A DNA stretch of 64,000 nt from contig JAQCDS010000004.1 in NCBI GenBank assembly GCA_027620655.1, positions 1 to 64,000 on the forward strand, written 5' to 3'. This document shows positions 25,435 to 45,948 of the stretch, one piece after another (position 1 is the first letter of the stretch; every line of letters begins with the position of its first letter). The notes under the pieces were generated by a model. That model had not been told where the DNA came from, did no database searches, and worked only from the letters and a program-made list of their open reading frames with translations. Made by a program: the position numbers and the translations under genes. The stretch is from Bacteroidota bacterium (GTDB lineage: Bacteria > Bacteroidota > Bacteroidia > Flavobacteriales > Flavobacteriaceae).

Positions 25435-25492
25435 AACTCTCAAATAAAAACGTCTTGATTTTCTAGAAAAATAAAATAGAATTATGTGTTAG

Positions 25493-25915: not shown

Positions 25916-25921
25916 TATAAA

Positions 25922-26395: not shown

Positions 26396-26425
26396 TTGAA
26401 TTTTACTTATTGCTTCTAATCTACT

Positions 26426-26875: not shown

Positions 26876-26929
26876 TTTTCAATGTTTATACCTTTCGGAA
26901 AACGATCTAATAAACATACAAATGACAAA

Positions 26930-27499
26930 TTAAGACTCATCTTTTTGAATCTGACTTTGATTCAATAGACTTAAAACCCTCAAAATATGATTGTCATAAT
27001 TTGATGTTCCTATTTGTTTTTGTAAAAATGGAATGACATCATCTCTGAGGGATAGAATCTCGAAGTTTTCTTGTTTTAAGTTGTGCTGTTTTGCCATTAA
27101 ATTTTTGAATTGGGTTATTTGCTCATCGCTTGGGTATGTCCATAGACACCAAACCCTAATAACCTTGTTCCATTCAAATCCAAATTCTTTATAGGCCTCT
27201 TGTATGCGATTTTTGTAGTTTACACCTTTTTGAAAGTCTGAATTTTCATTTGTTGAAAATCTTGGTGCTCCGAAAAATTTTCGATTGAACTTCTCTTCTA
27301 AATTATCTAAGGCTGTAGAGTCATTCTTTGACATCCAATGAGTTACACTTACCTCAATATGACGCAATTTATCAGTAGGTTTGTGATAAGCTAAAACATC
27401 AAATTGTCGATTATTACCGCCTTCAACTTTAAAATCCGTGAAAGTCAAATTATTCCGTTGTCGATAATATAGTTCAACAAGGTGTTCAGTTGCGTTCAT
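26930..27499 (-). CDS. Possible PD-(D/E)XK nuclease-like protein
   Basis: A 189-residue soluble protein of unknown family. The N-terminal part reads like a nuclease core: helix with E9, then QFDVLAYHKP (D34) and RHIEVSV (E49, S51), which is the D...ExK pattern with Ser in place of Lys; a Trp-rich segment WCLWTYP follows. This pattern is suggestive, not proof. It stands alone between the nucleotidase and the repeat-containing lipoprotein, same strand as both. Function unknown. Confidence 0.55.
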   Translation of the reverse strand: MNATEHLVELYYRQRNNLTFTDFKVEGGNNRQFDVLAYHKPTDKLRHIEVSVTHWMSKNDSTALDNLEEKFNRKFFGAPRFSTNENSDFQKGVNYKNRIQEAYKEFGFEWNKVIRVWCLWTYPSDEQITQFKNLMAKQHNLKQENFEILSLRDDVIPFLQKQIGTSNYDNHILRVLSLLNQSQIQKDES

Positions 27500-27546
27500 A
27501 TAATTTGTCTAAAATACTTTCCTAAAATTCTACCTAAGAGATAAAA

Positions 27547-28752
27547 TCAATCTATTTTTTTAATACCATAGCGAATTTCGTAATGGACAGTCTTTTCATT
27601 TAAAGCCACAACATCCAACCATGCATAGGTGTTTTTCCACGTACTGTTAGTTTGTAAGCCAATATAAGAATAACCATTACGGGGTTTTTTTATCAATCCC
27701 ACTCTACTTTGAGTTGAGATAGCGCTATTATTAATATCATACAGAAAAGCTTTAGGGTTTGGATCTCCAGTATAATTTAAGAATTTTTTGATTTCAGATT
27801 CTTTGTCAAAGAAGAAAACATTAAGCGAAAAGTCTTCATCTTTTTGTGGGGGAAACAAGTTGTTAAGAATCTCACGACTTAAGCTTGAATTTGAGCCGGA
27901 GGACTCCCATAATGGAATTCCAAAAACCTTAACTTTTTTTGAGCTGCTTCTGACTTTATCGAATAATTTTCCATCTTCGTTGAGGGCTTGATCTTTGCCA
28001 GATATTCTCAAGGTATAGATAAATTCCTTTGTGTTCTTTGGCACTTCAATAGGTGCATAAACTTTTGACTCCCCTGAAAGGCTCAATGAATTTGATACAA
28101 TAAATTTTTTGGGTTCATTGAAGGCTTTTTCATAACCTATGGTAGTGGTTTGAAGACTTGTTTGTGTTTTGTTTTTAACCACTACTGAATCTCTAGTGAT
28201 TTCATGACGATTATAATAGTTATCTACACTTGCCGATTTTCTTGAAATTTTAATATATACATAGGATTCTCTGACAAAGTCAACGTTTATCGAAAAAGGG
28301 TTATCAAAGTATACATCATAGATGAAATCTATTTTATTTTTATTTTTGAAAATTTTTACCGGCCGACCGCTTCTTTCTTCAATTATTGCAATTGATTTAA
28401 CAGGAGAATCTGACAAAAACTCAATCCGTATTGAATCTTTGGATAGCCCATAGAAAGCTTCTTTAAAATTTTCGCCTTTTTTTATAAACAATGACCTCTT
28501 TTCAAAAATTGACTCAAATTTCAAGTCTTCTTCTGTCATTTGATTACTTTTCTCATTGAGTTCTTGAAGTTGATCTTTTTCTTCTTGAAGTTGATCTTTT
28601 TCTTCTTGAAGTTGATCTTTTTCTTCTTGAAGTTGATCTTTTTCTTCTGTTACGATTTCTTTAGATTCATCAGTGATTGTTTCTGAGATGTATTTACATC
28701 CGAAAAATATATTTAAACAAAGAATCAGGTATAAATATTTTAATTTTTTCAT
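27547..28752 (-). CDS. Lipoprotein with perfect EEKDQLQ heptad repeats
   Basis: A 401-residue exported lipoprotein: signal peptide and lipobox at IFFGC (C18 from the ATG at 28752; the frame opens 17 codons earlier but the ATG at 28752 gives a clean signal). After it comes a coiled coil built from four identical 21-base repeats (EEKDQLQ), then a beta-rich region of about 330 residues with no family that I recognise, ending in strands typical of cell-surface domains (YAWLDVVAL). Probably on the periplasmic face or cell surface. It is next to an outer-membrane barrel gene and divergent from the large membrane NTPase locus. Confidence 0.65.
   Translation of the reverse strand: MKKLKYLYLILCLNIFFGCKYISETITDESKEIVTEEKDQLQEEKDQLQEEKDQLQEEKDQLQELNEKSNQMTEEDLKFESIFEKRSLFIKKGENFKEAFYGLSKDSIRIEFLSDSPVKSIAIIEERSGRPVKIFKNKNKIDFIYDVYFDNPFSINVDFVRESYVYIKISRKSASVDNYYNRHEITRDSVVVKNKTQTSLQTTTIGYEKAFNEPKKFIVSNSLSLSGESKVYAPIEVPKNTKEFIYTLRISGKDQALNEDGKLFDKVRSSSKKVKVFGIPLWESSGSNSSLSREILNNLFPPQKDEDFSLNVFFFDKESEIKKFLNYTGDPNPKAFLYDINNSAISTQSRVGLIKKPRNGYSYIGLQTNSTWKNTYAWLDVVALNEKTVHYEIRYGIKKID
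28561..28644. repeat. Four perfect 21-bp tandem repeats inside a lipoprotein gene
   Basis: Four uninterrupted identical copies of a 21-base unit (each includes TTCTTGAAGTTGATC). Because the unit is seven codons, copy-number change would keep the frame and alter coiled-coil length. Confidence 0.92.
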
Positions 28753-28877
28753 TTTTAAAAATTGGTTAACCGATGTATAAAAATATGAATTTTTTTTATT
28801 CAAGATGTTTATTAATAAGATTATATAATAATTATAAATTAATTGTTCTTAAACAAGTAATTATGATATTTGGCATC

Positions 28878-29636
28878 TTACAATGAAAACTCGATGCCTA
28901 AGTTTAATGAAGTGTCTGTTGTCAAGACATCAATGTAGGGCGTTGAATGAAACCTATAGGTAGAGTCAATAAATAAATCAATTTTTTTCAAAGAATAATA
29001 TATTCTAGGTTGGATAAACAATCGATAATCTTTTGTGTTCGAAGTATTAATTTGATAATAAATGGATAGGTTTACAAATAAGTCTTTGCTCAAAACATAT
29101 TTACCAAATGCGCTGAAGCTGTATCGCCAGTTATAAATTTGCAACTGCTGAGTTTCAGTTTCATCATACAATTCATCTTCAAAAAACAATCCAGCGCTCA
29201 AATCAAAATATGAATCTTCTTTTGAAAAAACTTGGTGCCGGTAGCCTCCTCCACTTATATAACGGTGTTTCATTCTAATTGATTTGATATTTTGTCCTTG
29301 GACAAAAGCAAAAACCGAATTTTCACCAATACTATAATTATACCTTAATTGACCAGTAAAGTCAGAGGCTATGATTTCATCACTTTCTTTAATATAATCA
29401 TAATTGAACAGTAATCTAATAAGATTTCTACCTGACTTTTTAGAGAACTGATGCGCAGTTGAAAATTGCATCAATTTAATATTCCCAAAGTTAAAATCTC
29501 CCTGAAAACTCATGTTGTAGGATAAATCATCCTTTAATTCTGACATCATATTCTCGGTATTAATTATAGTTTGAGAATTTAGATTTAAACAGATTAATAA
29601 AAAAATAATATTGAAAATTAATATTTTTTTCTCCAT
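28878..29636 (-). CDS. Predicted outer-membrane beta-barrel protein (DUF481-like)
   Basis: A 252-residue protein with a signal peptide (MEKKILIFNIIFLLICLNLN, cleaved near SQ) followed by about 12 amphipathic strands with alternating hydrophobic residues, ending GIEFSL with a terminal aromatic two residues before the end, as in outer-membrane barrels. It resembles DUF481-type proteins. A TAnnTTTG element lies 23 bases upstream. It is divergent from the 1473-residue NTPase gene. Function unknown. Confidence 0.72.
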   Translation of the reverse strand: MEKKILIFNIIFLLICLNLNSQTIINTENMMSELKDDLSYNMSFQGDFNFGNIKLMQFSTAHQFSKKSGRNLIRLLFNYDYIKESDEIIASDFTGQLRYNYSIGENSVFAFVQGQNIKSIRMKHRYISGGGYRHQVFSKEDSYFDLSAGLFFEDELYDETETQQLQIYNWRYSFSAFGKYVLSKDLFVNLSIYYQINTSNTKDYRLFIQPRIYYSLKKIDLFIDSTYRFHSTPYIDVLTTDTSLNLGIEFSL

Positions 29637-29658
29637 AATTACAATAATTTGATGTCTT

Positions 29659-29666
29659 CAAAGTTA
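29659..29666 (-). promoter_or_regulatory. Probable -7 element for the barrel gene
   Basis: On the minus strand TAACTTTG fits TAnnTTTG, 22 bases before the ATG at 29636. Confidence 0.5.
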
Positions 29667-29723
29667 ATAAAATTTAACATTTTTTTTTATATTAGCTATT
29701 AACCAATTTAACACTTAGAAACT

Positions 29724-32700
29724 TTGATTCGCCTTATAAAGCTTGAACTATTATTTTTAATGCTCATTCCCTGTATTCTTCTATCTCAAGTGGAAGAAGT
29801 TGAGCGATTATATAAAAAAGCAACTGTTGCATGTTTCTTTAGTGCAAGTAAATTAAATTCTTATTACGACTTTAAATATGCTCAATCTATTTTAGATTCC
29901 ACAAAAATTGCCTTTTCAAAACTCGATAAAACACACCCAAAATATAGTACCATTCTTGCTAACATCAACGCACTGGAAAGCGAATTAACAATTTCTGGAG
30001 AAATTGCGGAAGATAATTTAAATTATATTTATCCATCTTTTTCAGTTCTTGCTGGACATCGAGACGATTACAATTTTATTGATGATACTGAGGAGTTGTT
30101 ATTAGAAGATTTACTTCAAAGCTTTTTAGATCAAGCTGATCCAATATACAAAGGCAATTTATCTGACACATCTCATTTCATAATTTTTGAAGTTGACCCT
30201 TTTTCTTTTGGACATATAGGGGTGCTATTGGACTATATTTCTGTCAATACCTCACATTATGCTATAAGGCCACATGAATTTAAACAAATCTTGGGAGAAG
30301 AAGGTTATGATAGATACATGAAAAACACTTTCTCAAGTGATGATTATTTAAAGATATTGAATTATTATGGAATTGATGACTTGTTATCAATCTCTCTTTC
30401 TGACAATGGCTCTTTCGATCATATATTCTATAAGGGAATTACCTTAAACGTTATTAATAGATCCAATCCCATTAAAGTTTTTCACAAGTATACAGAAAAA
30501 TTTAAGCTTGATAAATCAGAATCCTTTAATGCCTCTGTTAGATTTCTCTTTTTTCTTTTTCTCACCCTCACCTTTATCTACTTTATTCTATTTTCTGGAT
30601 TTTTAAAATATGAAGTTGCAAACAGGGCATTCAAAGTTTCCAAAAAAAATCTTCTCAGAGAACTAAAATCTTTGGATCATTTATTATTGCTTGGCTCTGC
30701 TGTTGTTGCTATTTATGTTTTTAGTCAACTCTCTCAGAATATTAGGCCAGATATCAACGCATTTAAGGGAGATTTTTTATCGCGTTTATGGCCAATAGCC
30801 CAGGTTTTAACACCAATGTTAATGGTATTTAGTATCGGGTTTTTAGTCCGATATAAATTTTCTCAAAGTACAACTTCCTCTCCTGAAAGCCTATCAAGAT
30901 TAATTTTTGTTTCTCTTTCATTCCCCTACTTGTATTTGGAATATCATAATTCTTTGAGTCAATCTGCAAGCTCTGATTTTTACATCTATGCAGTGTATGT
31001 GTTGATTTTATTTCTACTAATATTACCATCAATTACATTAGGCAAATACCTTTCCGATTTGTTCAGGAAAAATTACCAAAAAACATCGTTAATGATTGTT
31101 GAGTCATTAAACATCATTATTTTGATTTTTGTGCAATACTTTATGATGGCTGGCGACATCAATTACAGTTTGATCTTTCTAGTTTCCTCTAACGTAATTT
31201 CGTTATACTATTTTAGGTTTAGAGAAAATGAAAAAAAGTTAAAAACTATAACTGAAAATAAAATTATCGATTTTGACATAACACCCAATTTCATAAGTAG
31301 TGGTACCAATGCAGCAATGGTAATTGATGACATTGATAAATTCCTGAATGATTTAGAAAAGAATGTTTTAATACTTTCTGGCAACCGCGGGTCTGGAAAA
31401 ACAAGGCTCCTAGATAATTACTTTCAAGGCCAAAAAAATAAAATTGAATTATTCAAAGGGTCTTTTGACGATAAACAGCCAAATTACGATACCGAATTTG
31501 GTGTTTTTAAAAATATTTTTGTTGATTCCAATCTTGAAATCACGCCTAATTTTTTCAGTAGAAATACCGCCGCTGTTCAAGGAATTGGCGCTGTATTGAA
31601 AACTGCCTCAAAGGTAGCTCAGATTGATGTCACTGAGGTTTTAGATATAGAAGACAATACCACGAACCTAATGGATTTAAGTTCAGATTTATTGGAAGAA
31701 TTGGCGAAAAATGGTGAAAAAACCAATCGAAAACAGATTTTAATTTTTGAAGATTATCATTTTGTAGAAAAGGACATTAATAACAAAGACTTTGTTAATG
31801 CTCTAATTAAAAATCATTCAAAACGAACTTTTTTTCAAAAGTATATAAAGTTCATATTTAGTTATGAGTCAGAATATAACATTGAGGGCCAGCCATTTAA
31901 CACCTATTTAGAAGAACTAACTAGACTGACTGCTTTTAGTGAAAGTGAACTTATTGTCACCAAACCCAGTGCATTTATTTCAGAATATTGCATGAAAACA
32001 GACCAATTGATAGTTGACGATAAGCTAATACCCTTCTTAAAGAAAAATTTAGACAATGATTATTTTAGTCCCCTTGCCCTAACGGTATATATTAAAGAAT
32101 TGATGGCCGAAAAATATGTTGTCATTGATAATAATTCACTAAGACTAATTAAAACACCAGGTGATTATGGTTTAAAAAACGAGTTATTTTATAAAAAAGA
32201 TAAGGATTTATTTGACTCACTTAGTCCTGAAGAAAAAAACCTACTGATTTCCGCGGCAAAGTATGGTAATAAATTTAATGCAGAAGTTCTAAGCCATGTT
32301 TGGAGTATTGATCTAATTCATGTGATTGACATTTTAGAACATATTGAAGACGTCGGGCTGATTAATGATGATGTGAGCATTGATAATGTTTTTGATTTTA
32401 ATAATATACATTTCTTTAAATGGCTAAAAACAAATTACAAAAAAGGGCACTCAAATATTGAAGATCAAAAACAAAAAGAAATAGAAATCGATAAAAGAAT
32501 TATTGATTATGTATTCAGTAAAGATGATTTAAGTTATTTTTCAAAAAATGAAATTTACTCATTTATTGAACGATTAATTAACTTAGGGAACAGGGTAAAT
32601 AATTATGATGATAAGTTGATCAAACTAAGAGTTTTTGTTGCCAAAGAAGTTTTTAAAACACCTGAAGAGCAAAATGGGGAAGGGGTAATATTTTTAAAAG

Positions 32701-34145
32701 AAATCTTTAAATATATTCAGCCAGTTCATAAATTTTACATTGCTGATGTACTTGACATTCTTAAAAATTGTGTTATTCAAAATGGTAATTTAAAAATCCT
32801 AATGAATGATGAAAACAATCAAACATTATTAGAAATAATCTATGATTACATCTCAGCCAATGGTACTGACCAAGAGAAGTCGGATATGAATTTAATTAAT
32901 TTAAGAAATTCATGGTCTTTACGCTTAAATGACCCTGCTAACGAACATATAGAATTTTTTAATAAATCTTTCAAGTTTGATGCCTATCGAAATAAAGATA
33001 AAGTTAGAGTTCAATTTTATAAATCACTTCTTGAAACACAGGGGCAAATATCGGGAAGACAATATGATGATTTAATAAATTCAGCATTCAACGATGATGA
33101 CATTCAGTTAGTTGGAGAAATATTAAGGGACAGGATTATAAGAGGAAGCCTCAACTTAAAAGATAAGAAATCAAATTTAGACTTTTGTTTGTCCGTGGAG
33201 GCAGGTGAAGTCGCAAACAGACATGAGATTCAATCCAATGACTTAGACGATATTGCTGTAAAATCAAAACTTACGAGTGTATTATCATCAGAACTGGATT
33301 CTACAAAAGCCAGTAATTTATCCTACATTCTAAGCCGATATTTGGAATTTTACACCACAAAACAAAATTATAAAACCGTTATTGACTTTTCAGAATATGC
33401 TATCAAAGTGGCCCTTAATATTGGAGATAGAATAGGTATTTATAATGCAAAAAAATATGCAGGATACTCAAATTATTGTTTAGGAAACCATGAGGCTTCC
33501 CTTGCCATTTATGAAGCCTATTTTTGTAAAATGTTAGCTGATGAGGAATATATCAATGAATATTTCAGAGATGCCCTAGAGGGTATTTTATATAATTGTA
33601 AAGCAATCAATGATTACACAGCATTTGAAAGGATCAATCAACTACTAAAAAAGGAAGCAAAGTTTTTACCCTATCGCCTTATCCACTCGAACCCTGAAAG
33701 AAGCTTATTCAATCCTAATCAACAAATTATTGATTTATTACCGGCATCTAATATTAAGACTGGGCTTAAGACTTCAATTAACAAGTCTCATTATGATTTG
33801 ACAAAAAGTATACTGGAGTGTTTTATTGCTGCAGATAAGGATTTTGATAAAGCAGAATCATTTGATTTAAAACAGATTATTCTATTGATGTCCAACAAAG
33901 AGGCCAATGTGGACTTGATATCAAAATCAATTTCAAAAAAAATCACATCAATCGAGCCCGGAGTGTCATTTGAAAGTAGTAAATTATATAAGGATTTTGT
34001 TGATTACTGTAACAAGCTCCAGTTGATTGAAGATGAATATTTCAAGAAACAAATCTTTTATTACTGCAGGTTGTTGGTAAGCTCAGACGGAGATATCCAT
34101 CCTAATGAACAGATTTTACTATTAAAGTTAAAAGACTTTATTTAA
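29724..34145 (+). CDS. Giant membrane-anchored STAND-like NTPase with TerB-like tail (1473 aa)
   Basis: A signal-like segment (1-20) precedes an extracytoplasmic domain (about 20-268). Six or seven membrane helices follow (about 270-497). The cytosolic part starts near 500 with a P-loop NTPase: Walker A GNRGSGKT (553-560) and Walker B ILIFED (672-677). A winged-helix-like stretch and a long helical repeat region lead to a C-terminus LLVSSDGDIHPNEQILLLKL that resembles TerB domains. It would couple an envelope signal to a cytosolic switch. The start is a TTG at 29724 (in-frame stop at 29709); the ATG at 29760 would spoil the signal segment. First gene of a nine-gene plus-strand run. No known family assigned. 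Confidence 0.7.
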   Translation: MIRLIKLELLFLMLIPCILLSQVEEVERLYKKATVACFFSASKLNSYYDFKYAQSILDSTKIAFSKLDKTHPKYSTILANINALESELTISGEIAEDNLNYIYPSFSVLAGHRDDYNFIDDTEELLLEDLLQSFLDQADPIYKGNLSDTSHFIIFEVDPFSFGHIGVLLDYISVNTSHYAIRPHEFKQILGEEGYDRYMKNTFSSDDYLKILNYYGIDDLLSISLSDNGSFDHIFYKGITLNVINRSNPIKVFHKYTEKFKLDKSESFNASVRFLFFLFLTLTFIYFILFSGFLKYEVANRAFKVSKKNLLRELKSLDHLLLLGSAVVAIYVFSQLSQNIRPDINAFKGDFLSRLWPIAQVLTPMLMVFSIGFLVRYKFSQSTTSSPESLSRLIFVSLSFPYLYLEYHNSLSQSASSDFYIYAVYVLILFLLILPSITLGKYLSDLFRKNYQKTSLMIVESLNIIILIFVQYFMMAGDINYSLIFLVSSNVISLYYFRFRENEKKLKTITENKIIDFDITPNFISSGTNAAMVIDDIDKFLNDLEKNVLILSGNRGSGKTRLLDNYFQGQKNKIELFKGSFDDKQPNYDTEFGVFKNIFVDSNLEITPNFFSRNTAAVQGIGAVLKTASKVAQIDVTEVLDIEDNTTNLMDLSSDLLEELAKNGEKTNRKQILIFEDYHFVEKDINNKDFVNALIKNHSKRTFFQKYIKFIFSYESEYNIEGQPFNTYLEELTRLTAFSESELIVTKPSAFISEYCMKTDQLIVDDKLIPFLKKNLDNDYFSPLALTVYIKELMAEKYVVIDNNSLRLIKTPGDYGLKNELFYKKDKDLFDSLSPEEKNLLISAAKYGNKFNAEVLSHVWSIDLIHVIDILEHIEDVGLINDDVSIDNVFDFNNIHFFKWLKTNYKKGHSNIEDQKQKEIEIDKRIIDYVFSKDDLSYFSKNEIYSFIERLINLGNRVNNYDDKLIKLRVFVAKEVFKTPEEQNGEGVIFLKEIFKYIQPVHKFYIADVLDILKNCVIQNGNLKILMNDENNQTLLEIIYDYISANGTDQEKSDMNLINLRNSWSLRLNDPANEHIEFFNKSFKFDAYRNKDKVRVQFYKSLLETQGQISGRQYDDLINSAFNDDDIQLVGEILRDRIIRGSLNLKDKKSNLDFCLSVEAGEVANRHEIQSNDLDDIAVKSKLTSVLSSELDSTKASNLSYILSRYLEFYTTKQNYKTVIDFSEYAIKVALNIGDRIGIYNAKKYAGYSNYCLGNHEASLAIYEAYFCKMLADEEYINEYFRDALEGILYNCKAINDYTAFERINQLLKKEAKFLPYRLIHSNPERSLFNPNQQIIDLLPASNIKTGLKTSINKSHYDLTKSILECFIAADKDFDKAESFDLKQIILLMSNKEANVDLISKSISKKITSIEPGVSFESSKLYKDFVDYCNKLQLIEDEYFKKQIFYYCRLLVSSDGDIHPNEQILLLKLKDFI

Positions 34146-34151
34146 GGACTC

Positions 34152-34625
34152 ATGAAAATTTTAAACTATATTTTTTTAGATGATTACTTCAAACTAGATT
34201 TTGAGTCTGAGAGTGGTTTTAAGATTGTAATTGGATATAAACGCTTTTACTTCTTTTTTAAAACCACAACGCACACCCACCTATTTATCAAAGCAAAAAA
34301 AACGCTTTCAAAAGTGGTTGTATTTCATTTAAATTGGTTGAAGTTAAAAAAAGCTAGCTTCAAATTAGAGCCTGAAAATCTAATACAAAACGATTTTCCA
34401 TCTATTGATTTAACCTACAATAATAGTGTTAATACACAAGGAATTGAAAATAGGACTGGAGATTTACTTAATTACACGGATGATTTTAAAGAAATAAAAT
34501 TTAAAACCCCTTTTCTTAAATTCAAACCCCCTTCCAACCCTTCAAGATCTATTAACTACGAGTTAAAAAATAAATACATCAAAAAAATTATTAAATACAA
34601 ACGACCAATTTTAAGGATTAAATAA
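34152..34625 (+). CDS. Hypothetical protein (157 aa)
   Basis: Not recognised. It is basic and soluble: a beta-rich N-terminal half (DYFKLDFESESGFKIVIGYK) and a polar C-terminal half with short Lys/Pro-rich segments. No signal peptide or membrane helix. It sits 6 bases after the giant NTPase gene and 2 bases before the DUF4407 gene, so it belongs to the same transcript and may be an accessory subunit. Confidence 0.6.
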   Translation: MKILNYIFLDDYFKLDFESESGFKIVIGYKRFYFFFKTTTHTHLFIKAKKTLSKVVVFHLNWLKLKKASFKLEPENLIQNDFPSIDLTYNNSVNTQGIENRTGDLLNYTDDFKEIKFKTPFLKFKPPSNPSRSINYELKNKYIKKIIKYKRPILRIK

Positions 34626-34627
34626 TC

Positions 34628-36007
34628 ATGGAAAAAGAATTACAAACAACCCAAACCCAAAAATCAACAAAGGAAACTGAAGTACAAAATTTTAATTTGG
34701 ATTTAAATGACTATTTGAAAGATACGAATGTCTCATTTTTCACCAAATTCTTGTGGTGGTGTTGCGGTGCAGATAAAAAGATTCTAATAAAAGCAACAAA
34801 TTATGATAGGGTCAAATATGCTGGGATCGGTGCAATTGTGCTTGTGACAGGGATTTTAGCAGCCGTCTCGGGTGGATTTGCATTCAGCACTATTTTTGCT
34901 ACTAAAGAAATGGCAGTAGATAAAATTAATACTGGGGAGGAGGGTATGTTATCTTTTCTAGGAAATATCGATGTCTCTTCCATAGCTGTGGTCATATTTG
35001 CTATTTTTTGGGGGTTAATGATCTTTAATATTGATCGATTCATAATATCTTCTACAGGCAAAGGAGACGGTACGGATAAAATAACCCTTGGAGAGTTTGG
35101 TCGTGCCTTACCAAGATTAATAATCGCTGTAATTTTAGGGGTTACAATATCAAAACCATTAGAACTTAAGATATTTGAATCAGAAATAAATGCTGAACTC
35201 GAGCAGAAACAACGGGAGTATCAAGCTGATTTAGACGAGAAAACTACGGCCAAGTTTGATAAATTAAAAAAAGAGCTTGAGGAAAAGAGAACACCACTTA
35301 GAGAAAAGAAAAATGATTTGAACAAAACTTTAGAGGAGAGAAGATTGGAAGTTCTTAACCTAGAGGAAGAACTACAATATGAGATTCAAGGCCGTGTAAA
35401 AGGTCGAAAAGGAAGTGGTAGAGGCGGTTACGGCCCTGCTGCAAAAAAAATAGAACAAACCATAGCCAAAAGGACCTCTGAGCTTGAGAATCTAAAGCTA
35501 ACCTATGCTGTACAGCAAGAGGAATTAGATGCTGAAATTGGAGAGATTAAACTTTTAATAACAGAACTGGATGGTGAACAGAAAACTGAGCGGCTTAATA
35601 ATAAGAAATTAGCAAAAGGCCTGGACGGATTATTACAACGTATAAAAATTGGAGACGAAGTAGCAGGGGTAATTGGTATATTTTTAATGCTTCTTCTTTT
35701 ATCAATAGAAACAGGACCACTATTTTTTAAAATGATGATGAATAAAGGACCATATGATTTTATGGAAGAAAATCTTAAGAACAAGATTAAAGCTTTTAAT
35801 GGGATCGTCATTGAATATGATTTTTACCCAGACGGTAAGGAAGGTCAAAAAATAAAGAAGGTTAACTTTTTGGAAGTTAAAGCCGAGGAGGATATAGCCA
35901 AAACCAGAGTTGCGGGCCAAACGGAAATTAATAATTCAATAATAGAAAGCTATAAGGCTTCTGAAATAAAAAACATTAAAAATAACCCTGAGGATTATAT
36001 CTCATAA
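34628..36007 (+). CDS. DUF4407 coiled-coil membrane protein
   Basis: A 459-residue protein of the DUF4407 family (role unknown). The family mark FLWWCCGADK lies at 41-50. Three membrane helices (about 64-90, 116-140, 158-180) are followed by a charged coiled coil (about 183-345) containing a Gly-rich loop GRKGSGRGGYGP, a fourth helix (about 348-370) and a cytosolic tail. By charge the coiled coil would lie on the outer side. It is followed after 3 bases by a protein with the same topology, suggesting that the two form a complex. Confidence 0.85.
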   Translation: MEKELQTTQTQKSTKETEVQNFNLDLNDYLKDTNVSFFTKFLWWCCGADKKILIKATNYDRVKYAGIGAIVLVTGILAAVSGGFAFSTIFATKEMAVDKINTGEEGMLSFLGNIDVSSIAVVIFAIFWGLMIFNIDRFIISSTGKGDGTDKITLGEFGRALPRLIIAVILGVTISKPLELKIFESEINAELEQKQREYQADLDEKTTAKFDKLKKELEEKRTPLREKKNDLNKTLEERRLEVLNLEEELQYEIQGRVKGRKGSGRGGYGPAAKKIEQTIAKRTSELENLKLTYAVQQEELDAEIGEIKLLITELDGEQKTERLNNKKLAKGLDGLLQRIKIGDEVAGVIGIFLMLLLLSIETGPLFFKMMMNKGPYDFMEENLKNKIKAFNGIVIEYDFYPDGKEGQKIKKVNFLEVKAEEDIAKTRVAGQTEINNSIIESYKASEIKNIKNNPEDYIS

Positions 36008-36010
36008 ACA

Positions 36011-37084
36011 ATGCAAAAGGTTAATTTCTTTATTCTAAAACATATATTAGGATTAGACCCATATGTTTTAAAGCAAGAAAAAGAAAAAGGGAGTAATAGT
36101 GGGTTGTTTTTTTCAATATTCACATTTTCTTTCCTGATTATTTTCTTTATAACGCTATTAAAATCCGTGCAGGCGATTTTGTATGACATGCCTTATTGGG
36201 CTGTAATAATAATTTGCTTTGTTGCATTTTTACCCTTTTATAATGTTTTTTCATTTGCTTTAGTTTCTTGGAGATCCCATAATAGTTTTCTAGGTCAAAG
36301 CGATAAAACCAAGTTTTCTGATTTTATCTCTTCGACTGTAACCTTATTAACACGTTGTGTTTTTTTGTTTTTGACTTTAGGGCTCTTTATTGGATTGTCT
36401 TATACGCTGTTGAATCAGCAATCGGTCTCACAAGACATTAAAGGATTTAAAAATAGTTTAGTTTCAGATTACCAAAATAACCTAAATGAGCAAGTTGAAA
36501 TTGATAAAAAAATTGAAAGTAGAGAATACAATGACGTTATAAATGAAATTTACAATCTTGAGGATAAGATTGCTAACTCAAATTCTAGGTTAGACAGTCT
36601 AAGTTATCTAAGTCTAATAAAACCACTACTTGAAAGAAGAGACATCTTAGCAAAAGGAATCCAAGTCATTGAACAAGAACTATTGGCCGACTCTGACCAA
36701 AAACTAAAAAAATATAAGGCTAAGATTAATAAAAATCCATTTTTTCTTAAGTCGCTAATTTTGCTTTCGGAAAGGCCCTCATTTTTAACTTATATGGGAC
36801 TGATCTTAGCCATTTTTGGTGTGTTTATGTTTATGTTTTGGTGGCGGTTTGTTAGGTCAAAGTCAATTTATTTTAAAATAGACAATCACCTTCATAAGAA
36901 TGCCATTCTTCGCACCTCAACTCCAATAGTAAAAAGGACCATTCAAATTGTGAAATCAAAATTCAACTATGATTACAAAATACAGTTTCCATTAGAAAAG
37001 GAACCCACTAGAGAAGACGTAGAGCCAGAAGTCATTATGGGCAGAGAGGATTTTATAACTAAGCTAAGAAAAAATGAGTTATAA
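36011..37084 (+). CDS. DUF4407-like second coiled-coil membrane protein
   Basis: A 357-residue protein with three N-terminal membrane helices (about 32-55, 60-80, 110-135), a coiled coil (about 145-245), a last helix (about 258-280) and a basic cytosolic tail. Topology and size mirror the preceding DUF4407 protein although sequence similarity is low; its beginning (FILKHILGLDPYVLK) may correspond to the DUF4407 WWCCGADKKIL segment. A diverged paralogue or partner. It overlaps the next gene by 11 bases. Confidence 0.65.
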   Translation: MQKVNFFILKHILGLDPYVLKQEKEKGSNSGLFFSIFTFSFLIIFFITLLKSVQAILYDMPYWAVIIICFVAFLPFYNVFSFALVSWRSHNSFLGQSDKTKFSDFISSTVTLLTRCVFLFLTLGLFIGLSYTLLNQQSVSQDIKGFKNSLVSDYQNNLNEQVEIDKKIESREYNDVINEIYNLEDKIANSNSRLDSLSYLSLIKPLLERRDILAKGIQVIEQELLADSDQKLKKYKAKINKNPFFLKSLILLSERPSFLTYMGLILAIFGVFMFMFWWRFVRSKSIYFKIDNHLHKNAILRTSTPIVKRTIQIVKSKFNYDYKIQFPLEKEPTREDVEPEVIMGREDFITKLRKNEL

Positions 37085-38447
37085 AATCCATGTCACTTTA
37101 GGTGAGTTTGCTTCAGCTTTTAAAGCCAAAAAAAATTCTGGAATAGGAAATTTTGATACGTTCTCTCAAATAAAAGAATTTCATGATATCAAATTAACAG
37201 GTGAGAGAAAGTTCAATATTACAGAAATAGACACTGTTTATGAAATAAAGGAGTTTAATGAATTGGTTGATTGCCCTAAAATTATTGTAGAAACCCCATC
37301 AAATGTAGAGACCAAGTTCCCCGCAAATAAAAGAGTATTTCCAAACCCTCAAAATAAAAATTATAAGCTACTAACCATCCTCAATCCTATTTTTGATAAT
37401 GTTACTACAGATGCAAAAGATCCGCTGTTTATTTATGGTTTCTTACAAGGTAAGTGTTTGATTTATAAAAAAGTTTGGACCCCAAAAAAATCTAAGTCAA
37501 AGCCTGACAAGAAAGAATTGAAAACAGTTATAAAGAGTGAGATTTCAGCTGTTGAAGACAGGGCTTGTTTTGATAGCGGGGAGCGACAAAAAAGTTGCTT
37601 TAATAACGGCTTACTTTCTGGAAAAAAGCCATGCTTTGATTCAAGTTATGGTATGCAACACGGTTTAATGTCTAAGCCTTGTTTTAGAAATACGTTATAT
37701 CCGAATCAAACAGGATGCTATTCGAATTCTGTAGGGTGTCTTTCTGGTCCACAAATTGCGGGTGCCCCCTCTCCATGTTTTTCGGGATGTTTTGGATTAG
37801 GGTGTTTTAATTCTGGTTGTTTTGGAAATAGCTGTTTTGGTTCAGGCTTAACAAGCCCTTGCTTTAATTCTCCAGTATTAAGAGCATTATTTAATTTATT
37901 TGGTTTGTTCAGTCTTTTTGTGATTTTAATGTATCTCATATGTAATTTAGGGGGATCTGTTGTGAGTATACCCAATTTCGAAGACATCACAGAGACTGAT
38001 CAAACCAAGATAATTAAGCCAGATTCTTTAATGGTTAATCAAGAAAAAGTTGTGAACCCCATCAAAGAGTCAGAAATCATTGACATTGGAAGTACAGACA
38101 GAGTTTTTCTATATGTCGGAGATTTTGAAGATGAAGATGAAGATACCGTTAACTTATTTTTCAATGATGAGCTTATAGCAAGTAACTTAGAACTTAAAAA
38201 TAATCTTAAACAGTTTGAACTCACAGATGTTGTGCCCAAACATATCAACACACTTAGAGTAGAGGCTGTATCAAATGGATATGGCCCACCATGTACAACG
38301 TTTTATTATGTCTGTAAAAATTGTTTTGGCAAAGAGGAATGCTTTGATAAATATAAAATTAACCTATTGGCTGGAAAGGATGACAACAAACGAACGGGAG
38401 AAATATATTTTTATATCAATGAATTGGATTGTGTTTATGAACAATAG
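37074..38447 (+). CDS. Single-pass membrane protein with Cys-Phe repeat segment
   Basis: A 457-residue protein of unknown family. Residues 1-130 form a soluble cytosolic domain. Residues 165-264 contain 12 Cys, ten of them in CF pairs (SCF, PCF, GCF) within Gly/Ser/Pro-rich sequence. One membrane helix (about 268-292) follows, then an extracytoplasmic domain (about 310-457) with strands around DEDTVNLFFNDELI, like the short beta domains found in Bacteroidota surface proteins, and five more Cys. The Cys segment lies on the cytosolic side by charge, where free thiols or metal or lipid attachment are possible. Neighbouring proteins have shorter versions of the same motif just before their membrane helices. 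Confidence 0.65.
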   Translation: MSYKIHVTLGEFASAFKAKKNSGIGNFDTFSQIKEFHDIKLTGERKFNITEIDTVYEIKEFNELVDCPKIIVETPSNVETKFPANKRVFPNPQNKNYKLLTILNPIFDNVTTDAKDPLFIYGFLQGKCLIYKKVWTPKKSKSKPDKKELKTVIKSEISAVEDRACFDSGERQKSCFNNGLLSGKKPCFDSSYGMQHGLMSKPCFRNTLYPNQTGCYSNSVGCLSGPQIAGAPSPCFSGCFGLGCFNSGCFGNSCFGSGLTSPCFNSPVLRALFNLFGLFSLFVILMYLICNLGGSVVSIPNFEDITETDQTKIIKPDSLMVNQEKVVNPIKESEIIDIGSTDRVFLYVGDFEDEDEDTVNLFFNDELIASNLELKNNLKQFELTDVVPKHINTLRVEAVSNGYGPPCTTFYYVCKNCFGKEECFDKYKINLLAGKDDNKRTGEIYFYINELDCVYEQ

Positions 38448-38452
38448 TAAAG

Positions 38453-39595
38453 ATGAATTATAGATACGCAGAAATAAATATTGAGGACATTAACTCATGG
38501 GACGAAATTGTTGTAAGCAGTGGAGTCCATGTTATTAATAATGTGATAAACGTTACAGCTAAGGAATATTCATCTTTGGCTAAAAATTCTATTGAGGAAT
38601 CAGGCGCAGAAAAAATACTGAACCTTAAGTTTATTCCAGACTCAAGTATTAATGGCCATTATAAATTGATGAATTATTTTGCCATTTCTGAAGACGGGAA
38701 GTCTAATGAGGTGTATTTAAAATTAATAGATCAAAGAGGTGAGGAAAATACCAGTCAATTTTCAACAAAAAACACCAAAGAAAAAATCTTCACAAATCCA
38801 GGCTTTGATTCAAATTTAGCTCAAAGATCGCCATTTAATCAACAATCGGGCTGTATGAGGAATCCTTTGTTTTCTGGCTGTTGGAATATGATGTCACTAT
38901 TTGGGGTATTACTTTTTTTGGGGGGATTATTTTCAATTTACAACAACGACTATAACTGGATTAATAGCCTTTCAGGCAATTGTCAAAACTGCTTGGTAGA
39001 TGTAGATAAACTATGGCAAGGGGACAGCCAGGAAATAAAAAAGGACAGTTTAATATCCTCAAAAAAGACTCCACTAGTTTTTTTGGACTCCTTAAATTTG
39101 AAACAATCAGAATTTATTGACATCAGTTTATTATGGTTTTCAAAAAACGATATGGATTTGATATTGGTCGGACCAGATGGAGAACTATTATGGAAAGACA
39201 ATCCAACAACAGGGTATGGAACCATGGACATTTCCATGAACGACTCAAGGCTTGATTCCCTACGAAATTACAGTATGATGCTGTCATTAAAAGAGGCCAA
39301 AACAACTGCCTATGAACATTTATATATCGATAAAAATATTTCTTTAAAATCAGGAACGTATTCACTGTATGTTTTGAATTCAGATAAAAGAGAAAATTGT
39401 AATCTAAAAGATCAATACATAATAAGATATATTCAAAATAATGTGACTAAACACTATAAAGGCGAGTTGGGAAATTCCTTGAACAATAGATGCCTTGGCG
39501 AGAAGTTTTTTAAACAAGTATATTCACAGAAGAGCTTGGAAAAAAACCTTCAAAATGGTGTTGCACATTTCATTCTAGATATTGAAATTAATTAA
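38453..39595 (+). CDS. Single-pass membrane protein with YfaP/DUF2135-like domain
   Basis: A 380-residue protein. The N-terminal cytosolic domain (1-105) is followed by a linker with GCMRNPLFSGCW (about 133-144), one membrane helix (about 146-163), and an extracytoplasmic domain with MDLILVGPDGELLWKDNP, a TMDISMNDS strand, EHLYID and SGTYSLYVLNS, the pattern of YfaP/DUF2135-type beta-sandwich domains. It is laid out like the preceding Cys-Phe protein, so the two look like paralogous adaptors. It overlaps the next gene by one base (TAATG). Confidence 0.65.
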   Translation: MNYRYAEINIEDINSWDEIVVSSGVHVINNVINVTAKEYSSLAKNSIEESGAEKILNLKFIPDSSINGHYKLMNYFAISEDGKSNEVYLKLIDQRGEENTSQFSTKNTKEKIFTNPGFDSNLAQRSPFNQQSGCMRNPLFSGCWNMMSLFGVLLFLGGLFSIYNNDYNWINSLSGNCQNCLVDVDKLWQGDSQEIKKDSLISSKKTPLVFLDSLNLKQSEFIDISLLWFSKNDMDLILVGPDGELLWKDNPTTGYGTMDISMNDSRLDSLRNYSMMLSLKEAKTTAYEHLYIDKNISLKSGTYSLYVLNSDKRENCNLKDQYIIRYIQNNVTKHYKGELGNSLNNRCLGEKFFKQVYSQKSLEKNLQNGVAHFILDIEIN

Positions 39596-41337
39596 TGAGA
39601 GTTGAGAAGTTAATATATGGTCCTATTTCTGGCTGGTTTAAAAGCGAATCTGGAAATATCATGGAAAATAGCATGACATCTTACACCCCTAAGTTTGATC
39701 GTATTGTACTTCAAGATTTTAAAACAAAAACAATTAAAGACAAACCATTGTCTCTATTTAAAACTGGTAAATATGTTTGGTTAGAAAAACAAGAAGTCTT
39801 ATTAAAAAAAGCGGAAGATCAGTATCAAATTAAATTTAGCGAATGTATTCTCAATGAATTGAAAATCAATGAAATCATTACAGACGTAAAAGGACAACAA
39901 TACGCCAAATATGAAGCCATATTTTATGCTGTTATAAGCTATGATACAATACAGAAAGCGATAGTTGATAAACCAACCAAGGTTGAGAAAACCACAAATT
40001 TGGTTAATAAAACAGCGACAGATAAGCGTGTTGATCCTATTGTCATTGAAGAAATTCCCCAAAAAACAGGATGTTTCTCAAGGGGTATATCTTCATCTTC
40101 AGACATTAACAGTCATACAACTTATGGATTTTTTGGTAATAGATCCTATAAAAATAAGCGGGAACACTTTAATCAAATTTTTAAAGTCAATAAAGAATTT
40201 TTTAGCTCTTCCCTTAAAGAAGGTGGTGCTAATTTCAGATCAACACTAAATACTCAAAAAAATCAATTTTTTCAAAGAACAACAGTTCAAAAAGACCCGA
40301 TGAGATCCATTGGGAGTTCATTTTTTAATGTGTTAAAATTTATTTTAGCCCTACTGTTGATACCAACATGGTTATATTTTTCAGTTGGTGAAATTAATGG
40401 AACCTTTCTTGTTTTTCTTGTCTTTTTTATTTTAGCTCTTTACTTTTCTTTCTTCAACAGTAAATTTAGGGGCAGTTTTATTGGTAGATTACTGCGATTT
40501 TTAATTAATGGATTTACAATTTTAGCTCTTTTTGGAATTATTAGTTTCCTATTGAGTTATGCAGATACAGATGATTTTGACTATGAAAGAGATGATGATA
40601 ATGAGACCGAATATGTTGAGATTGAGGAAGATTCATTACAACAGTCCGATAAGCTATTTATTAATCAACACAAATGGAATGATTTTAAGGGAAATCGGTA
40701 TGAAGAAAAATTTGTTGCTAGTTTGAATGACTACAGGGAATCTAACAAGTTTTTAAATCAACTCGAGATTAGACAAGATTATTATTTTTGGGGGAATTTA
40801 TACAAAAACGCTTCAGATTTTGAAAAAACAAAGATGGATTCTATCAGAAAAATGTTTATTGACTTAAAGCCGTCAAATAGCATTAAGGCATTAAAACCTA
40901 TTGATCAGCTTAATGCTATTTTAACTTCCATTCAGGCTATTCCTTATTATCTTGTTCACGAAGGAAGCTGTCAACAATCTGCCTATTTGAGTGTTTTCTC
41001 CAGACAATATCATCAACAAAATCAACCTTGTAAACCAAATACTAAATATGGTTTGTCGATGCCTTCAGAATTTATAGCAAATTTCAAGGGCGATTGCGAC
41101 ACAAGAGCTTTGTTCCTTTACAGTATTTTAAAAGAACGTGGCTTGGATGTTGCAGTTTTAGTGAGTGAACAATATGGGCATGCTATTTTAGGAATTAATA
41201 TTCCAGGAAAAGGAAAATATGTCACAAAAAACGGAAAAAAATATCTAACTTTTGAAACTACTTCCAAAGGATGGAAAATTGGTCAATTACCACCAAATTG
41301 CTCCAATACAAGGTATTGGAAAGTAGCTTTAAATTAA
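39595..41337 (+). CDS. Membrane protein with transglutaminase-like protease domain
   Basis: A 580-residue protein. Cytosolic N-terminal domain (1-125), a GCF motif near 158, two or three membrane helices (about 240-315), a very acidic spacer (about 325-350), then an extracytoplasmic domain ending in a transglutaminase/papain-like fold: GDCDTRALFL (C501), YGHAILGI (H529) and TFETT (E554), a plausible Cys-His-Glu triad. It may cut or cross-link envelope proteins or peptidoglycan. It has the same build (soluble head, GC motif, membrane helix, outer domain) as the two genes before it. An extra Cys in GSCQQSAYL could be regulatory. Confidence 0.7.
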   Translation: MRVEKLIYGPISGWFKSESGNIMENSMTSYTPKFDRIVLQDFKTKTIKDKPLSLFKTGKYVWLEKQEVLLKKAEDQYQIKFSECILNELKINEIITDVKGQQYAKYEAIFYAVISYDTIQKAIVDKPTKVEKTTNLVNKTATDKRVDPIVIEEIPQKTGCFSRGISSSSDINSHTTYGFFGNRSYKNKREHFNQIFKVNKEFFSSSLKEGGANFRSTLNTQKNQFFQRTTVQKDPMRSIGSSFFNVLKFILALLLIPTWLYFSVGEINGTFLVFLVFFILALYFSFFNSKFRGSFIGRLLRFLINGFTILALFGIISFLLSYADTDDFDYERDDDNETEYVEIEEDSLQQSDKLFINQHKWNDFKGNRYEEKFVASLNDYRESNKFLNQLEIRQDYYFWGNLYKNASDFEKTKMDSIRKMFIDLKPSNSIKALKPIDQLNAILTSIQAIPYYLVHEGSCQQSAYLSVFSRQYHQQNQPCKPNTKYGLSMPSEFIANFKGDCDTRALFLYSILKERGLDVAVLVSEQYGHAILGINIPGKGKYVTKNGKKYLTFETTSKGWKIGQLPPNCSNTRYWKVALN

Positions 41338-41348
41338 TCTTTACACAC

Positions 41349-41861
41349 ATGGATCAATTATTATTAAAAAATCTATTACTCTTAGCCATACTCTTGACAG
41401 TTGGAATTGTTTTTAGCTTCGTGGCGATTAAGCTAATTATTCAAATTTTTAAGCGCGGATTAGACATGGGGGAAGCTTTAAAGAATCCCGCTATTGTGAT
41501 CTTATTTAGTGCATCTATTCTTTGTATGGGTATCTTATTTTCAAGCTTACATGACCCATTATACGAAATATATCGGATATTGGAACAAACCGATGATGTG
41601 GTTTGGCAATCTATAAAATATACTTTGATATTTTTAGGGGTATCTTTTGTAGTTTGGTTGTTGGTTATTGGGTCTGCTATTTCTATAGTCTCCCTCAGCA
41701 CAAAAACAATAAAAGAAACCGATGAGATTAATGCAGGGAATTGGAAAATTGGACTATTTCTAGCGGCTATAATTATTACTCTAACATTACTTACAGCTTC
41801 GCCTTTAGCCAGCGTAATGGAGTCTATAATCCCTTACCCAGAACTTCCAGATTTATTTTAA
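41349..41861 (+). CDS. Four-helix membrane protein, hypothetical
   Basis: A 170-residue hydrophobic protein with four predicted membrane helices (about 5-30, 45-65, 85-115, 135-157). The frame opens at 41271 inside the transglutaminase-like gene, but the ATG at 41349 (MDQLLLKNLLLLAI) gives a normal membrane start 11 bases after the previous stop. No family recognised. Part of the plus-strand membrane locus. Confidence 0.6.
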   Translation: MDQLLLKNLLLLAILLTVGIVFSFVAIKLIIQIFKRGLDMGEALKNPAIVILFSASILCMGILFSSLHDPLYEIYRILEQTDDVVWQSIKYTLIFLGVSFVVWLLVIGSAISIVSLSTKTIKETDEINAGNWKIGLFLAAIIITLTLLTASPLASVMESIIPYPELPDLF

Positions 41862-41880
41862 ATCATCTAATTACTCTGTT

Positions 41881-42369
41881 TTGAAATCAACAATCTCTTT
41901 AATTCAAAATTATGAGAAATTATTAGAAGGTGGAGTAGATTTAAATTATAAGAGAAAGTATAAACGCATTATTACTTTTGATACTCTCTCAAAATTATAT
42001 CAAACTTACTTTAGGCATCTTTCTTTTACAGCTAATGAAGAAATTAAAGTATCAAAGGAGGATAAAGACATTGTTATTTTTCTCTTAAGAGTACATTTTA
42101 GGCAATGGATTGAGGTAGAGGGATTCAATATCACAGTGTACAAAGATTTTCCACAACAATTTGAAGTTATAAAGGAGGTTAATAAATACAACCATTATTT
42201 TACACCAAGGACATTTGTGGTGGGAGAGGTCTTGTTTTACAGTAATTCAGTTTATGGCAGTTGCAACTTTTTAAATGGCATACCGTTAGCGGAGTCTCTA
42301 GAGCCCGTTGAGGGAACTACTATCATAGCAACCACTCAGATAAATTACGGTTATATAAAACCAAAATAA
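41881..42369 (+). CDS. Hypothetical protein (162 aa)
   Basis: Not recognised. Soluble, mixed alpha/beta, no signal peptide. The N-terminus is helical (ISLIQNYEKLLEGGVDL); the C-terminus is beta-rich with FVVGEVLFYSNSVYGSCNF. The start is a TTG at 41881; no ATG lies near it. Last gene of the plus-strand membrane locus, convergent with the minus-strand lipoprotein cluster with a 4-base gap and no visible terminator. Confidence 0.55.
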   Translation: MKSTISLIQNYEKLLEGGVDLNYKRKYKRIITFDTLSKLYQTYFRHLSFTANEEIKVSKEDKDIVIFLLRVHFRQWIEVEGFNITVYKDFPQQFEVIKEVNKYNHYFTPRTFVVGEVLFYSNSVYGSCNFLNGIPLAESLEPVEGTTIIATTQINYGYIKPK

Positions 42370-42373
42370 TATA

Positions 42374-42949
42374 TTAATTAAGAAGTTTTTCGGTTTTATC
42401 AATTCTATCAAATAAAATTTTAACCATAGTTTTTTCTTCATCATATCCATCCTCTCCTTTTTCATAAATTAGTTGATAATATGAATCATACACAGCATCT
42501 GGTAATTTTAAAGCCCATTTTTTAGCTGTCTTATATTTTTCTTCGTCTATTAAACGATCAACAATAAAGGAAATAATTGTAAATTGAGCTCCATAATAAA
42601 GACCTGGCCTATAATCGTTATATTCTGTAAAATGGTTTTTGCCTTCCGAAATTGTATTAAAAGATCTATTGAAGTCATTATCTCTTGCCCAATACAAGGC
42701 TTCTTCAATAATAATTTTTTGCATATTCTCAGCTCTAACTCCACCAATAGCATCATCATTTAAAAGATTCGCTATCTTTCTAGCTGAAACAAAATCATAT
42801 ATTGACAAGCAATCATCTACAGATTTACAACTTAAATCTTCAATTAAATTAGATAAATCTTCTTTTCTTTGATCTCTCCTTTTTTCTGAATCTGACTTAC
42901 AAGAAAAAGCTAAAGAAGTTAAAATTAGCCCAAATAATAGTTTTTTCAT
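42374..42949 (-). CDS. Small lipoprotein, paralogue of 43173-43730
   Basis: A 191-residue lipoprotein: signal peptide with lipobox LAFSC (C17), then a charged linker and helices. It shares with the 185-residue protein two genes upstream the pattern C-x4-DCLS-x-Y-(D/N)-F-x3-R in the mature N-terminus, a KKW..(R/K)LP segment near the end and overall length, so the two are paralogues, probably TPR-like. Its ATG overlaps the stop of a broken TerB-like ORF (ATGA). Role unknown. Confidence 0.65.
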   Translation of the reverse strand: MKKLLFGLILTSLAFSCKSDSEKRRDQRKEDLSNLIEDLSCKSVDDCLSIYDFVSARKIANLLNDDAIGGVRAENMQKIIIEEALYWARDNDFNRSFNTISEGKNHFTEYNDYRPGLYYGAQFTIISFIVDRLIDEEKYKTAKKWALKLPDAVYDSYYQLIYEKGEDGYDEEKTMVKILFDRIDKTEKLLN

Positions 42950-43146
42950 TTTAGATTATATTTTTTCGACAATCTTTTTTGAAGATCGTTATTTTTATTA
43001 AACTTATAAATTAAATATTTACCCTCGTCCTTGTCGTGGCCTTCATTAATAGCTTTTTTTATAATAACTTGACGTTCTTTTTCACTTAATTTTCCATCTG
43101 TTTATGCAGATTCTATTAAGTCATTTATATCATCTGATAATTTCAT
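42946..43146 (-). pseudogene. Small TerB-like ORF interrupted by a nonsense codon
   Basis: From the ATG at 43146 the frame reads MKLSDDINDLIESA, then TAA at codon 15 (43102-43104), then continues in the same frame for 51 codons (TDGKLSEKERQVIIKKAINE...) to a TGA that overlaps the next gene's ATG. The LIESA-x-DGKLSEKERQ pattern is that of short TerB-like helical domains. The frame, tight spacing and conserved pattern on both sides show that it was a gene; a single base change explains the stop (a sequencing error is possible). Confidence 0.7.
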
Positions 43147-43172
43147 GGTATAAAAATTTATTTGGAATTAAA

Positions 43173-43730
43173 CTATTCATTTAGTGCCTTTTCAAAGTCT
43201 TTTATTTTTTTCATTGTAACTGATCTCATTTTAGGTGCTTCATCGTATTTGTATGGGGAACTTTTTTGAGTCCATCCATCAGTTTTAGCCTCTGGCAACC
43301 TGAAACACCATTTTTTAGCTTCTTTAAATTTCTCCTGAGACAATAAATTATCTATTACTTGATTAATCACTTTATATAAAGCTAAATTATATGATTGTTC
43401 ATCAAAAATATCTGAACCGTCATGAACAAATTTCATTTTTTCTTCTTTCACAATTGATAGTGCTTTTTCGTAGTTACCTTCATTAAACCAATAGTCTGAC
43501 TCCTGATTTATTATTTCTCTCCATCCAAAATCATATTGCGCTTGTTCAGTGAACGACATGTACTCAGTTTTTGATTTAATTAAATTTACATAAGCCCTAG
43601 CTCCTTCAAAATTATATTTTGAAAGACAATCTTCTATACCATTACATCCAAATTGATTTTTAAGTTTTGATTCTTCAGAACAAGAATATGAAGTCAATAG
43701 AACAATAAAGAAAAACCTAATTAATTTCAT
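43173..43730 (-). CDS. Small lipoprotein, paralogue of 42374-42949
   Basis: A 185-residue lipoprotein: signal peptide with lipobox TSYSC (C17), then a helical domain starting GCNGIEDCLSKYNFEGAR, which resembles its paralogue's CKSVDDCLSIYDFVSAR. Later helices contain KKWCFRLPEAKTDG, again paralleled by KKWALKLPDAVYDS in the other copy. The repeats of helices suggest a TPR-like scaffold in the periplasm. Part of the minus-strand cluster. Confidence 0.65.
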   Translation of the reverse strand: MKLIRFFFIVLLTSYSCSEESKLKNQFGCNGIEDCLSKYNFEGARAYVNLIKSKTEYMSFTEQAQYDFGWREIINQESDYWFNEGNYEKALSIVKEEKMKFVHDGSDIFDEQSYNLALYKVINQVIDNLLSQEKFKEAKKWCFRLPEAKTDGWTQKSSPYKYDEAPKMRSVTMKKIKDFEKALNE

Positions 43731-43738
43731 GAGATATA

Positions 43739-44917: not shown

Positions 44918-44918
44918 A

Positions 44919-45931: not shown

Positions 45932-45948
45932 TTTTTTTTTAAATATAA

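What the first reader, a model, noticed from the sequence alone, without database searches (positions are those of the whole stretch)
29724..42369. Undescribed-looking membrane NTPase/DUF4407/transglutaminase locus
Nine tightly packed plus-strand genes: a 1473-residue protein with outer domain, membrane helices, P-loop NTPase and TerB-like tail; two DUF4407-type coiled-coil membrane proteins; three single-pass-type proteins with soluble head, GC-motif linker, membrane helix and outer domain (the last with a Cys-His-Glu transglutaminase-like site); a four-helix protein and two unknowns. I know no named system with this set. Inference: an envelope-spanning sensor-effector machine, possibly for defence or stress.
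Basis: partly seen in the sequence, partly recalled or inferred. Interest (0 to 1): 0.82.

Follow-up and report, generated by a model that had tools for sequence, protein, structure and literature searches.

The report
Mobile envelope-spanning thiol-peptidase gene cassette
The nine genes are built around a real, previously undescribed five-to-six-gene cassette that moves between Bacteroidota and looks like a machine linking the cytoplasm to the cell wall, with a peptidase-like domain held in the periplasm; what it does is inferred, not shown.

Summary
In detail: nine abutting plus-strand genes, 29724-42369. The novelty claim also holds as far as the tools reach. All nine recur in the same order in a Polaribacter MAG. 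A core recurs in 31 loci from at least seven families: small protein, DUF4407, DUF4407-like paralogue, optional single-pass protein with a GC linker and an outer domain (often OmpA), transglutaminase-fold protein (TG), then a DUF350 or other four-helix protein. Genes overlap or abut. TG and DUF4407 co-occur far above chance (p about 1e-9). The giant NTPase P1, P6 and P9 were found only in the window and the Polaribacter MAG. The DUF4407 tree mixes families, so the cassette moves horizontally. Here it sits in a 38.2-kb island in a tRNA-Arg gene; a congener has the empty site. The island also carries a STAND cluster. Two relatives lie beside Avs2-like STANDs and two beside type I restriction genes. 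Best reading: an accessory envelope-spanning complex, N-termini inside, coiled coils and TG domain in the periplasm, peptidoglycan-anchored in relatives. It would use regulated periplasmic thiol proteolysis, as LapG does, for envelope defence or repair. Shown: conserved cassette, catalytic residues, mobility. Inferred: activity, trigger, defence. Structure models were too poor to use.

The parts
29724..34145 (+). P1, 1473 aa: signal peptide, about 250-aa periplasmic domain, about 5 membrane helices, P-loop NTPase (Walker A GNRGSGKT 553-560; hhhhED 676-677), helical repeats; membrane-anchored STAND-like by anatomy
   Evidence: 72% identical homologue only in L003; none in 295 other genomes of the order
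34152..34625 (+). P2, 157 aa small soluble basic protein; a small gene sits directly before DUF4407 in every locus not cut by a contig end
34628..36007 (+). P3, DUF4407: 4 TM with a 162-aa coiled-coil-like segment between TM3 and TM4, periplasmic by the positive-inside rule
36011..37084 (+). P4, divergent DUF4407 paralogue, same 4-TM/coiled-coil plan
37074..38447 (+). P5, single-pass: cytoplasmic head, Cys-Phe-rich GC linker, TM 272-290, outer beta domain shared with L113 and L088; takes the place of the OmpA-tailed protein of relatives
38453..39595 (+). P6, single-pass: head, GC linker, TM 144-162, outer beta domain; only window and L003
39595..41337 (+). P7 (TG): cytoplasmic head homologous to heads of single-pass proteins, 3 TM, periplasmic transglutaminase-fold domain, C501/H529/E554
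41349..41861 (+). P8, DUF350, 170 aa, 4 TM; directly follows TG in 28 of 31 cassettes by profile, and two more have another 4-TM protein there
41881..42369 (+). P9, 162 aa soluble, unknown; only window and L003
14079..14153 (+). tRNA-Arg (acg), attachment site of the island; left GGTCAC repeat 14148-14153
14154..52339 (.). 38.2-kb genomic island carrying the locus; right GGTCAC repeat 52334-52339, then the displaced native tRNA terminator; empty site in congener G1249 (L158)
14760..24462 (+). STAND cluster on the same island: 516 aa, STAND-type NTPase (NPHP3_N 2e-9), TPR 1208 aa, 1010-aa partner (g4) whose homologues also lie beside relatives of the cassette

Best explanation
P2-P8 encode a mobile, inner-membrane-based complex that spans the envelope. 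P3 and P4 form a membrane platform whose long coiled-coil hairpins project into the periplasm. The single-pass proteins (P5 and P6 here, OmpA-tailed in relatives) and TG share a cytoplasmic head family and reach outward, in relatives to peptidoglycan. DUF350 is the near-constant membrane partner of TG. A signal read inside (heads; J-domain variants) or across the membrane (P1, a STAND-like NTPase with its own periplasmic domain) would release or position the papain-like TG domain, which cuts or crosslinks envelope proteins, much as LapG does under LapD. It is an accessory, horizontally moving system, more likely for conflict or envelope defence than for housekeeping. Shown: conserved gene order, family assignments, conserved catalytic residues, horizontal spread. 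Predicted: topology. Inferred: complex formation, enzymatic activity, trigger, biological role.
For: Core order in 31 loci with median gaps of -4 to +4 bp for the main pairs. DUF4407 in 18 of 23 TG genomes of one family, 5.4 expected, p=1e-9. OmpA tails and J-domain heads. Odd TM number before the TG domain, mostly 3 or 1. Catalytic residues conserved; the TG profile finds LapG (4fgo, E=0.005) and a LOBO-like protein (E=8e-4), and Transglut_core matches 6 of 18 members. The LapD-LapG precedent is described in PMC4359373 and PMC3032545 (abstracts). DUF350 also occurs in PSP envelope-stress operons (PMC11237479). Tree mixing, island and empty site, 1 of 11 genus genomes. STAND and restriction neighbours.
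Against: No experiment. Structure predictions were too poor to use (pLDDT 34 and 46). P7 itself has no Pfam transglutaminase hit. The window lacks the OmpA tail. The neighbour survey had no significance test, and control regions also held restriction-type genes. TG plus DUF350 also exists as a lone pair in a constant context in Flavobacteriaceae, so that part may be housekeeping.
Confidence: 0.5

Rival explanations
1. Envelope stress or cell-wall maintenance module: the complex senses membrane or wall damage and repairs or remodels it. No anti-phage role; STAND neighbours reflect a shared insertion hotspot.
For: DUF350 in PSP-type operons; a TG-DUF350 pair in a constant chromosomal context in Flavobacteriaceae; OmpA and SH3 domains at or next to the loci.
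Against: Full cassette patchy (1 of 11 in the genus) and horizontally mobile; the STAND partner g4 co-occurs above chance in f20 (6 of 11, 1.7 expected, p=0.002) and in four genomes lies within 5 kb of TG.
Confidence: 0.3
2. Envelope translocation or adhesin-processing apparatus: TG processes a surface or secreted protein, as in the Lap system.
For: LapG is the closest bacterial solved structure by profile; the DUF481 protein 28878-29636 next to P1 could be an outer-membrane partner.
Against: No large adhesin or secretion gene was identified in the cassette or its near flanks; no GGDEF/EAL protein among the nine.
Confidence: 0.12
3. Chance juxtaposition on an island.
For: P1, P6 and P9 are lineage-specific.
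Against: 31 loci with the same core and near-zero gaps; co-occurrence p=1e-9.
Confidence: 0.02

Closest known systems
LapG/LapD (c-di-GMP-controlled periplasmic proteolysis)
   Same: Transglutaminase-like Cys-His periplasmic domain, regulated from the cytoplasm across the inner membrane (regulation is an inference here)
   Different: TG is membrane-tethered with its own cytoplasmic head; no GGDEF/EAL partner among the nine genes; Glu in the third position; DUF4407 and DUF350 partners
Zorya anti-phage system (ZorAB, PMC11890865)
   Same: Inner-membrane complex reaching peptidoglycan, accessory, in defence-type neighbourhoods
   Different: No MotA/ZorA-type hit; the coiled coil is predicted periplasmic; putative effector is a periplasmic thiol peptidase
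vWA-MoxR/STAND conflict systems (PMC7159879)
   Same: Combine NTPases with thiol-peptidase and peptidoglycan-binding effector domains; TG relatives do sit next to vWA and Tubulin_2 genes in L024, and next to Tubulin_2 in L122
   Different: No vWA or MoxR in this cassette
PSP-associated DUF350/YjfL operons (PMC11237479)
   Same: DUF350 membrane protein with envelope-linked partners
   Different: No PspA, no spermidine or ATP-grasp genes; DUF350 is paired with TG

Membership tests
DUF4407 (PF14362) | Profile match above cut-off | tested here: met
   P3 222 bits versus 31.3; P4 only through cassette profiles
DUF350 (PF03994) | Profile match above cut-off | tested here: met
   30 bits versus 26
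Transglutaminase-like superfamily | Profile match and Cys-His-Asp/Glu site | tested here: inconclusive
   Catalytic residues conserved; relatives hit Transglut_core at 4e-4, below cut-off, 6 of 18 members; PDB profile hits E 8e-4 and 0.005
STAND NTPase (P1) | P-loop STAND domain with C-terminal repeats | tested here: inconclusive
   AAA_22 and AAA_16 E 0.01-0.02, below cut-off; helical repeats predicted, NTPase part not modelled
Lap system | LapD-type GGDEF/EAL receptor encoded with LapG | tested here: not met
   No such domain in the nine proteins
Zorya | MotA-like ZorA and MotB/OmpA ZorB | tested here: not met
   No Zorya model matched the nine proteins in PADLOC at E<=1
vWA-MoxR ternary systems | vWA and MoxR genes | tested here: not met
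   Absent from the nine proteins
PSP | PspA | tested here: not met
   No PspA hit
Any anti-phage defence system | Measured protection against phage | not testable with these tools
   Only context: STAND and restriction neighbours

The most novel reading that the evidence does not exclude
A new class of mobile bacterial immune or envelope-defence machine: a DUF4407 platform with a peptidoglycan tether, whose effector is a periplasmic thiol peptidase or transamidase, switched in this lineage by a membrane-embedded STAND receptor with its own periplasmic sensor.
Probability: 0.3. Interest if true: 0.85.

Novelty: categorically new. Interest (0 to 1): 0.63.

Why it matters
It gives a defined, testable gene set to DUF4407, for which the searched library holds only three papers, and a partner to DUF350, a domain of unknown function. 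It suggests a widespread way for cytoplasmic signals to control periplasmic thiol proteolysis without c-di-GMP. If the role is defence, it adds an effector compartment (the periplasm) that, to my knowledge, is rare among described systems. The class rating applies to the gene system; its working principle may be LapG-like, and only open-access literature was searched.

Tried and rejected
AlphaFold of P7 and of the P1 C-terminal part: too low confidence, not used for fold searches. Viral contigs gave no relatives of TG, DUF4407 or P1, and plasmids no real TG relative, so I found no phage or plasmid carriage. PADLOC scan of 128 neighbours against 128 control genes: defence-type hits in both sets and only the top 25 families shown, so no significance is claimed. 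PDB sequence searches for P1 and P3 found nothing useful. Chance juxtaposition of the core rejected by the order in 31 loci.

Full report
The nine genes. All nine ORFs exist as described, on the plus strand, at 29724-42369. Only two have firm Pfam names: P3 is DUF4407 (1.2e-65) and P8 is DUF350 (5.9e-7); P1 shows subthreshold AAA hits. No PADLOC model fits any of the nine convincingly.

Conservation. In a Polaribacter MAG (L003) all nine genes recur in the same order with 57-91% identity. In a second MAG contig (L004) the order is P2, DUF4407, P4-like, a single-pass protein ending in OmpA, TG, DUF350. A phylum-wide scan and three denser scans gave TG relatives whose surroundings I fetched. Profiles built from the cassette proteins label the same core in 31 loci from at least seven families. 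Neighbouring genes abut or overlap: TG to DUF350 n=28, median 4 bp; P3 to P4 n=27, median -1 bp; P4 to TG n=18, median -4 bp. Of the three cassettes without a labelled DUF350, one ends at a contig edge and two have a 4-TM protein in its place. In family f20, 18 of 23 TG genomes also have DUF4407, against 5.4 expected (p=1e-9). The constant minimum is TG plus DUF350, which also exists alone, in a fixed chromosomal context in many Flavobacteriaceae. P1, P6 and P9 were found only in the window and L003; none of 295 other genomes of the order has P1.

Anatomy. P3 and P4 share a plan of four membrane helices with a long coiled-coil-like stretch between helices 3 and 4 (162 aa in P3, median 95 aa in the P4 family); charge places it in the periplasm. 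The P3 and P4 profiles find each other, so P4 is a divergent DUF4407 paralogue. P7 has three predicted membrane helices and short TG forms mostly have one; both odd numbers put the C-terminal domain outside if the N-terminus is inside. Two lineages (L021, L087) carry a DnaJ domain at that N-terminus (about 7e-23), which fits a cytoplasmic location because J-domains work with cytosolic DnaK (established knowledge). OmpA domains at the other end of the single-pass proteins (5e-19 and 1.5e-21) fit a periplasmic C-terminus. The heads of TG and of several single-pass proteins match one profile. All 20 single-pass proteins have a GC shortly before the membrane helix. In TG, C501, H529 and E554 are conserved in the true members of a 59-sequence alignment. 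The TG profile reaches a LOBO-like protein (8e-4) and LapG (4fgo, 0.005; the LapG identification is from my own knowledge, the entry is titled 'Periplasmic protein') in the PDB, and 6 of 18 members hit Transglut_core weakly. P1 has a signal peptide, an outer domain, about five helices, a Walker A motif and helical repeats, so a membrane-anchored STAND-like NTPase is the best guess; this is not proven.

Mobility. The DUF4407 tree mixes families on well supported branches; the window groups with f20 OmpA-type cassettes (100/98), not with the other cassettes of its own family. Only 1 of 11 genomes of the genus has it. The locus lies in a 38.2-kb island: congener G1249 shows the flank ending at the 3' end of tRNA-Arg joined directly to window 52334-52384, with a GGTCAC repeat at both ends of the island. 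Congener G914 has the same left end beyond the same tRNA. I found no integrase by Pfam in the ORFs scanned.

Neighbours. The island carries a STAND cluster at 14760-24462. Its 1010-aa partner gene (g4) occurs in 11 of 150 f20 genomes, 6 of which have TG (1.7 expected, p=0.002), and in four it lies within 5 kb of TG, two of these being short relics. L094 and L100 have Avs2-like STAND genes next to the cassette, L093 and L103 type I restriction genes. A matched control set also had restriction-type and other PADLOC hits, so defence association is suggestive only.

Interpretation. I favour an accessory envelope-spanning complex using regulated periplasmic thiol proteolysis, working like LapG under LapD (PMC4359373, PMC3032545) but not a member of that system: no GGDEF/EAL protein is among the nine, and TG carries its own cytoplasmic head. 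It is not Zorya (no Zorya model matches), not a vWA-MoxR system (PMC7159879), and not PSP, although DUF350 occurs in PSP operons (PMC11237479). Three papers in the library contain the term DUF4407; the one I opened only lists a gene in a table. Enzyme activity, trigger and biological role remain inferences.

Noticed in passing
14154-52339: tRNA-Arg genomic island of 38.2 kb with an empty site in a congener (L158); GGTCAC repeats at both ends; no integrase recognised by Pfam in the ORFs scanned; another congener (L157) has the same left end beyond the same tRNA.
   Followed up: yes
14760-24462: STAND cluster (516-aa unknown, NPHP3_N-type NTPase, TPR 1208 aa, 1010-aa partner) with no convincing PADLOC match; possible separate defence system.
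   Followed up: partly
L094:12896-12982 and L100:5113-5214: Short N-terminal relics of the 1010-aa STAND partner lie upstream of Avs2-like STAND genes, as if one gene had been replaced by another at the same place.
   Followed up: partly
L122 and L024: TG (with DUF350 in L122) sits next to Tubulin_2 genes; L024 also has a vWA gene and L122 a neighbour with a MIDAS-like DDSGS motif.
   Followed up: partly
44919-45931 (minus): A DUF6175 gene appears split in two: two ORFs match the two halves of the profile (positions 2-120 and 174-292).
   Followed up: no
37074-38447: P5 linker holds 12 cysteines in 125 residues, 11 of them followed by Phe or Tyr, just inside the membrane; role unknown (metal, acylation or assembly).
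   Followed up: partly
L118, L119, L120: Larger cassette variant with two TG genes and two or three OmpA-type or single-pass proteins around DUF4407, P4 and DUF350.
   Followed up: no
48691-50277: Glutamate synthase-like gene on the island; the ten congeners have only a large GltB-type paralogue.
   Followed up: no
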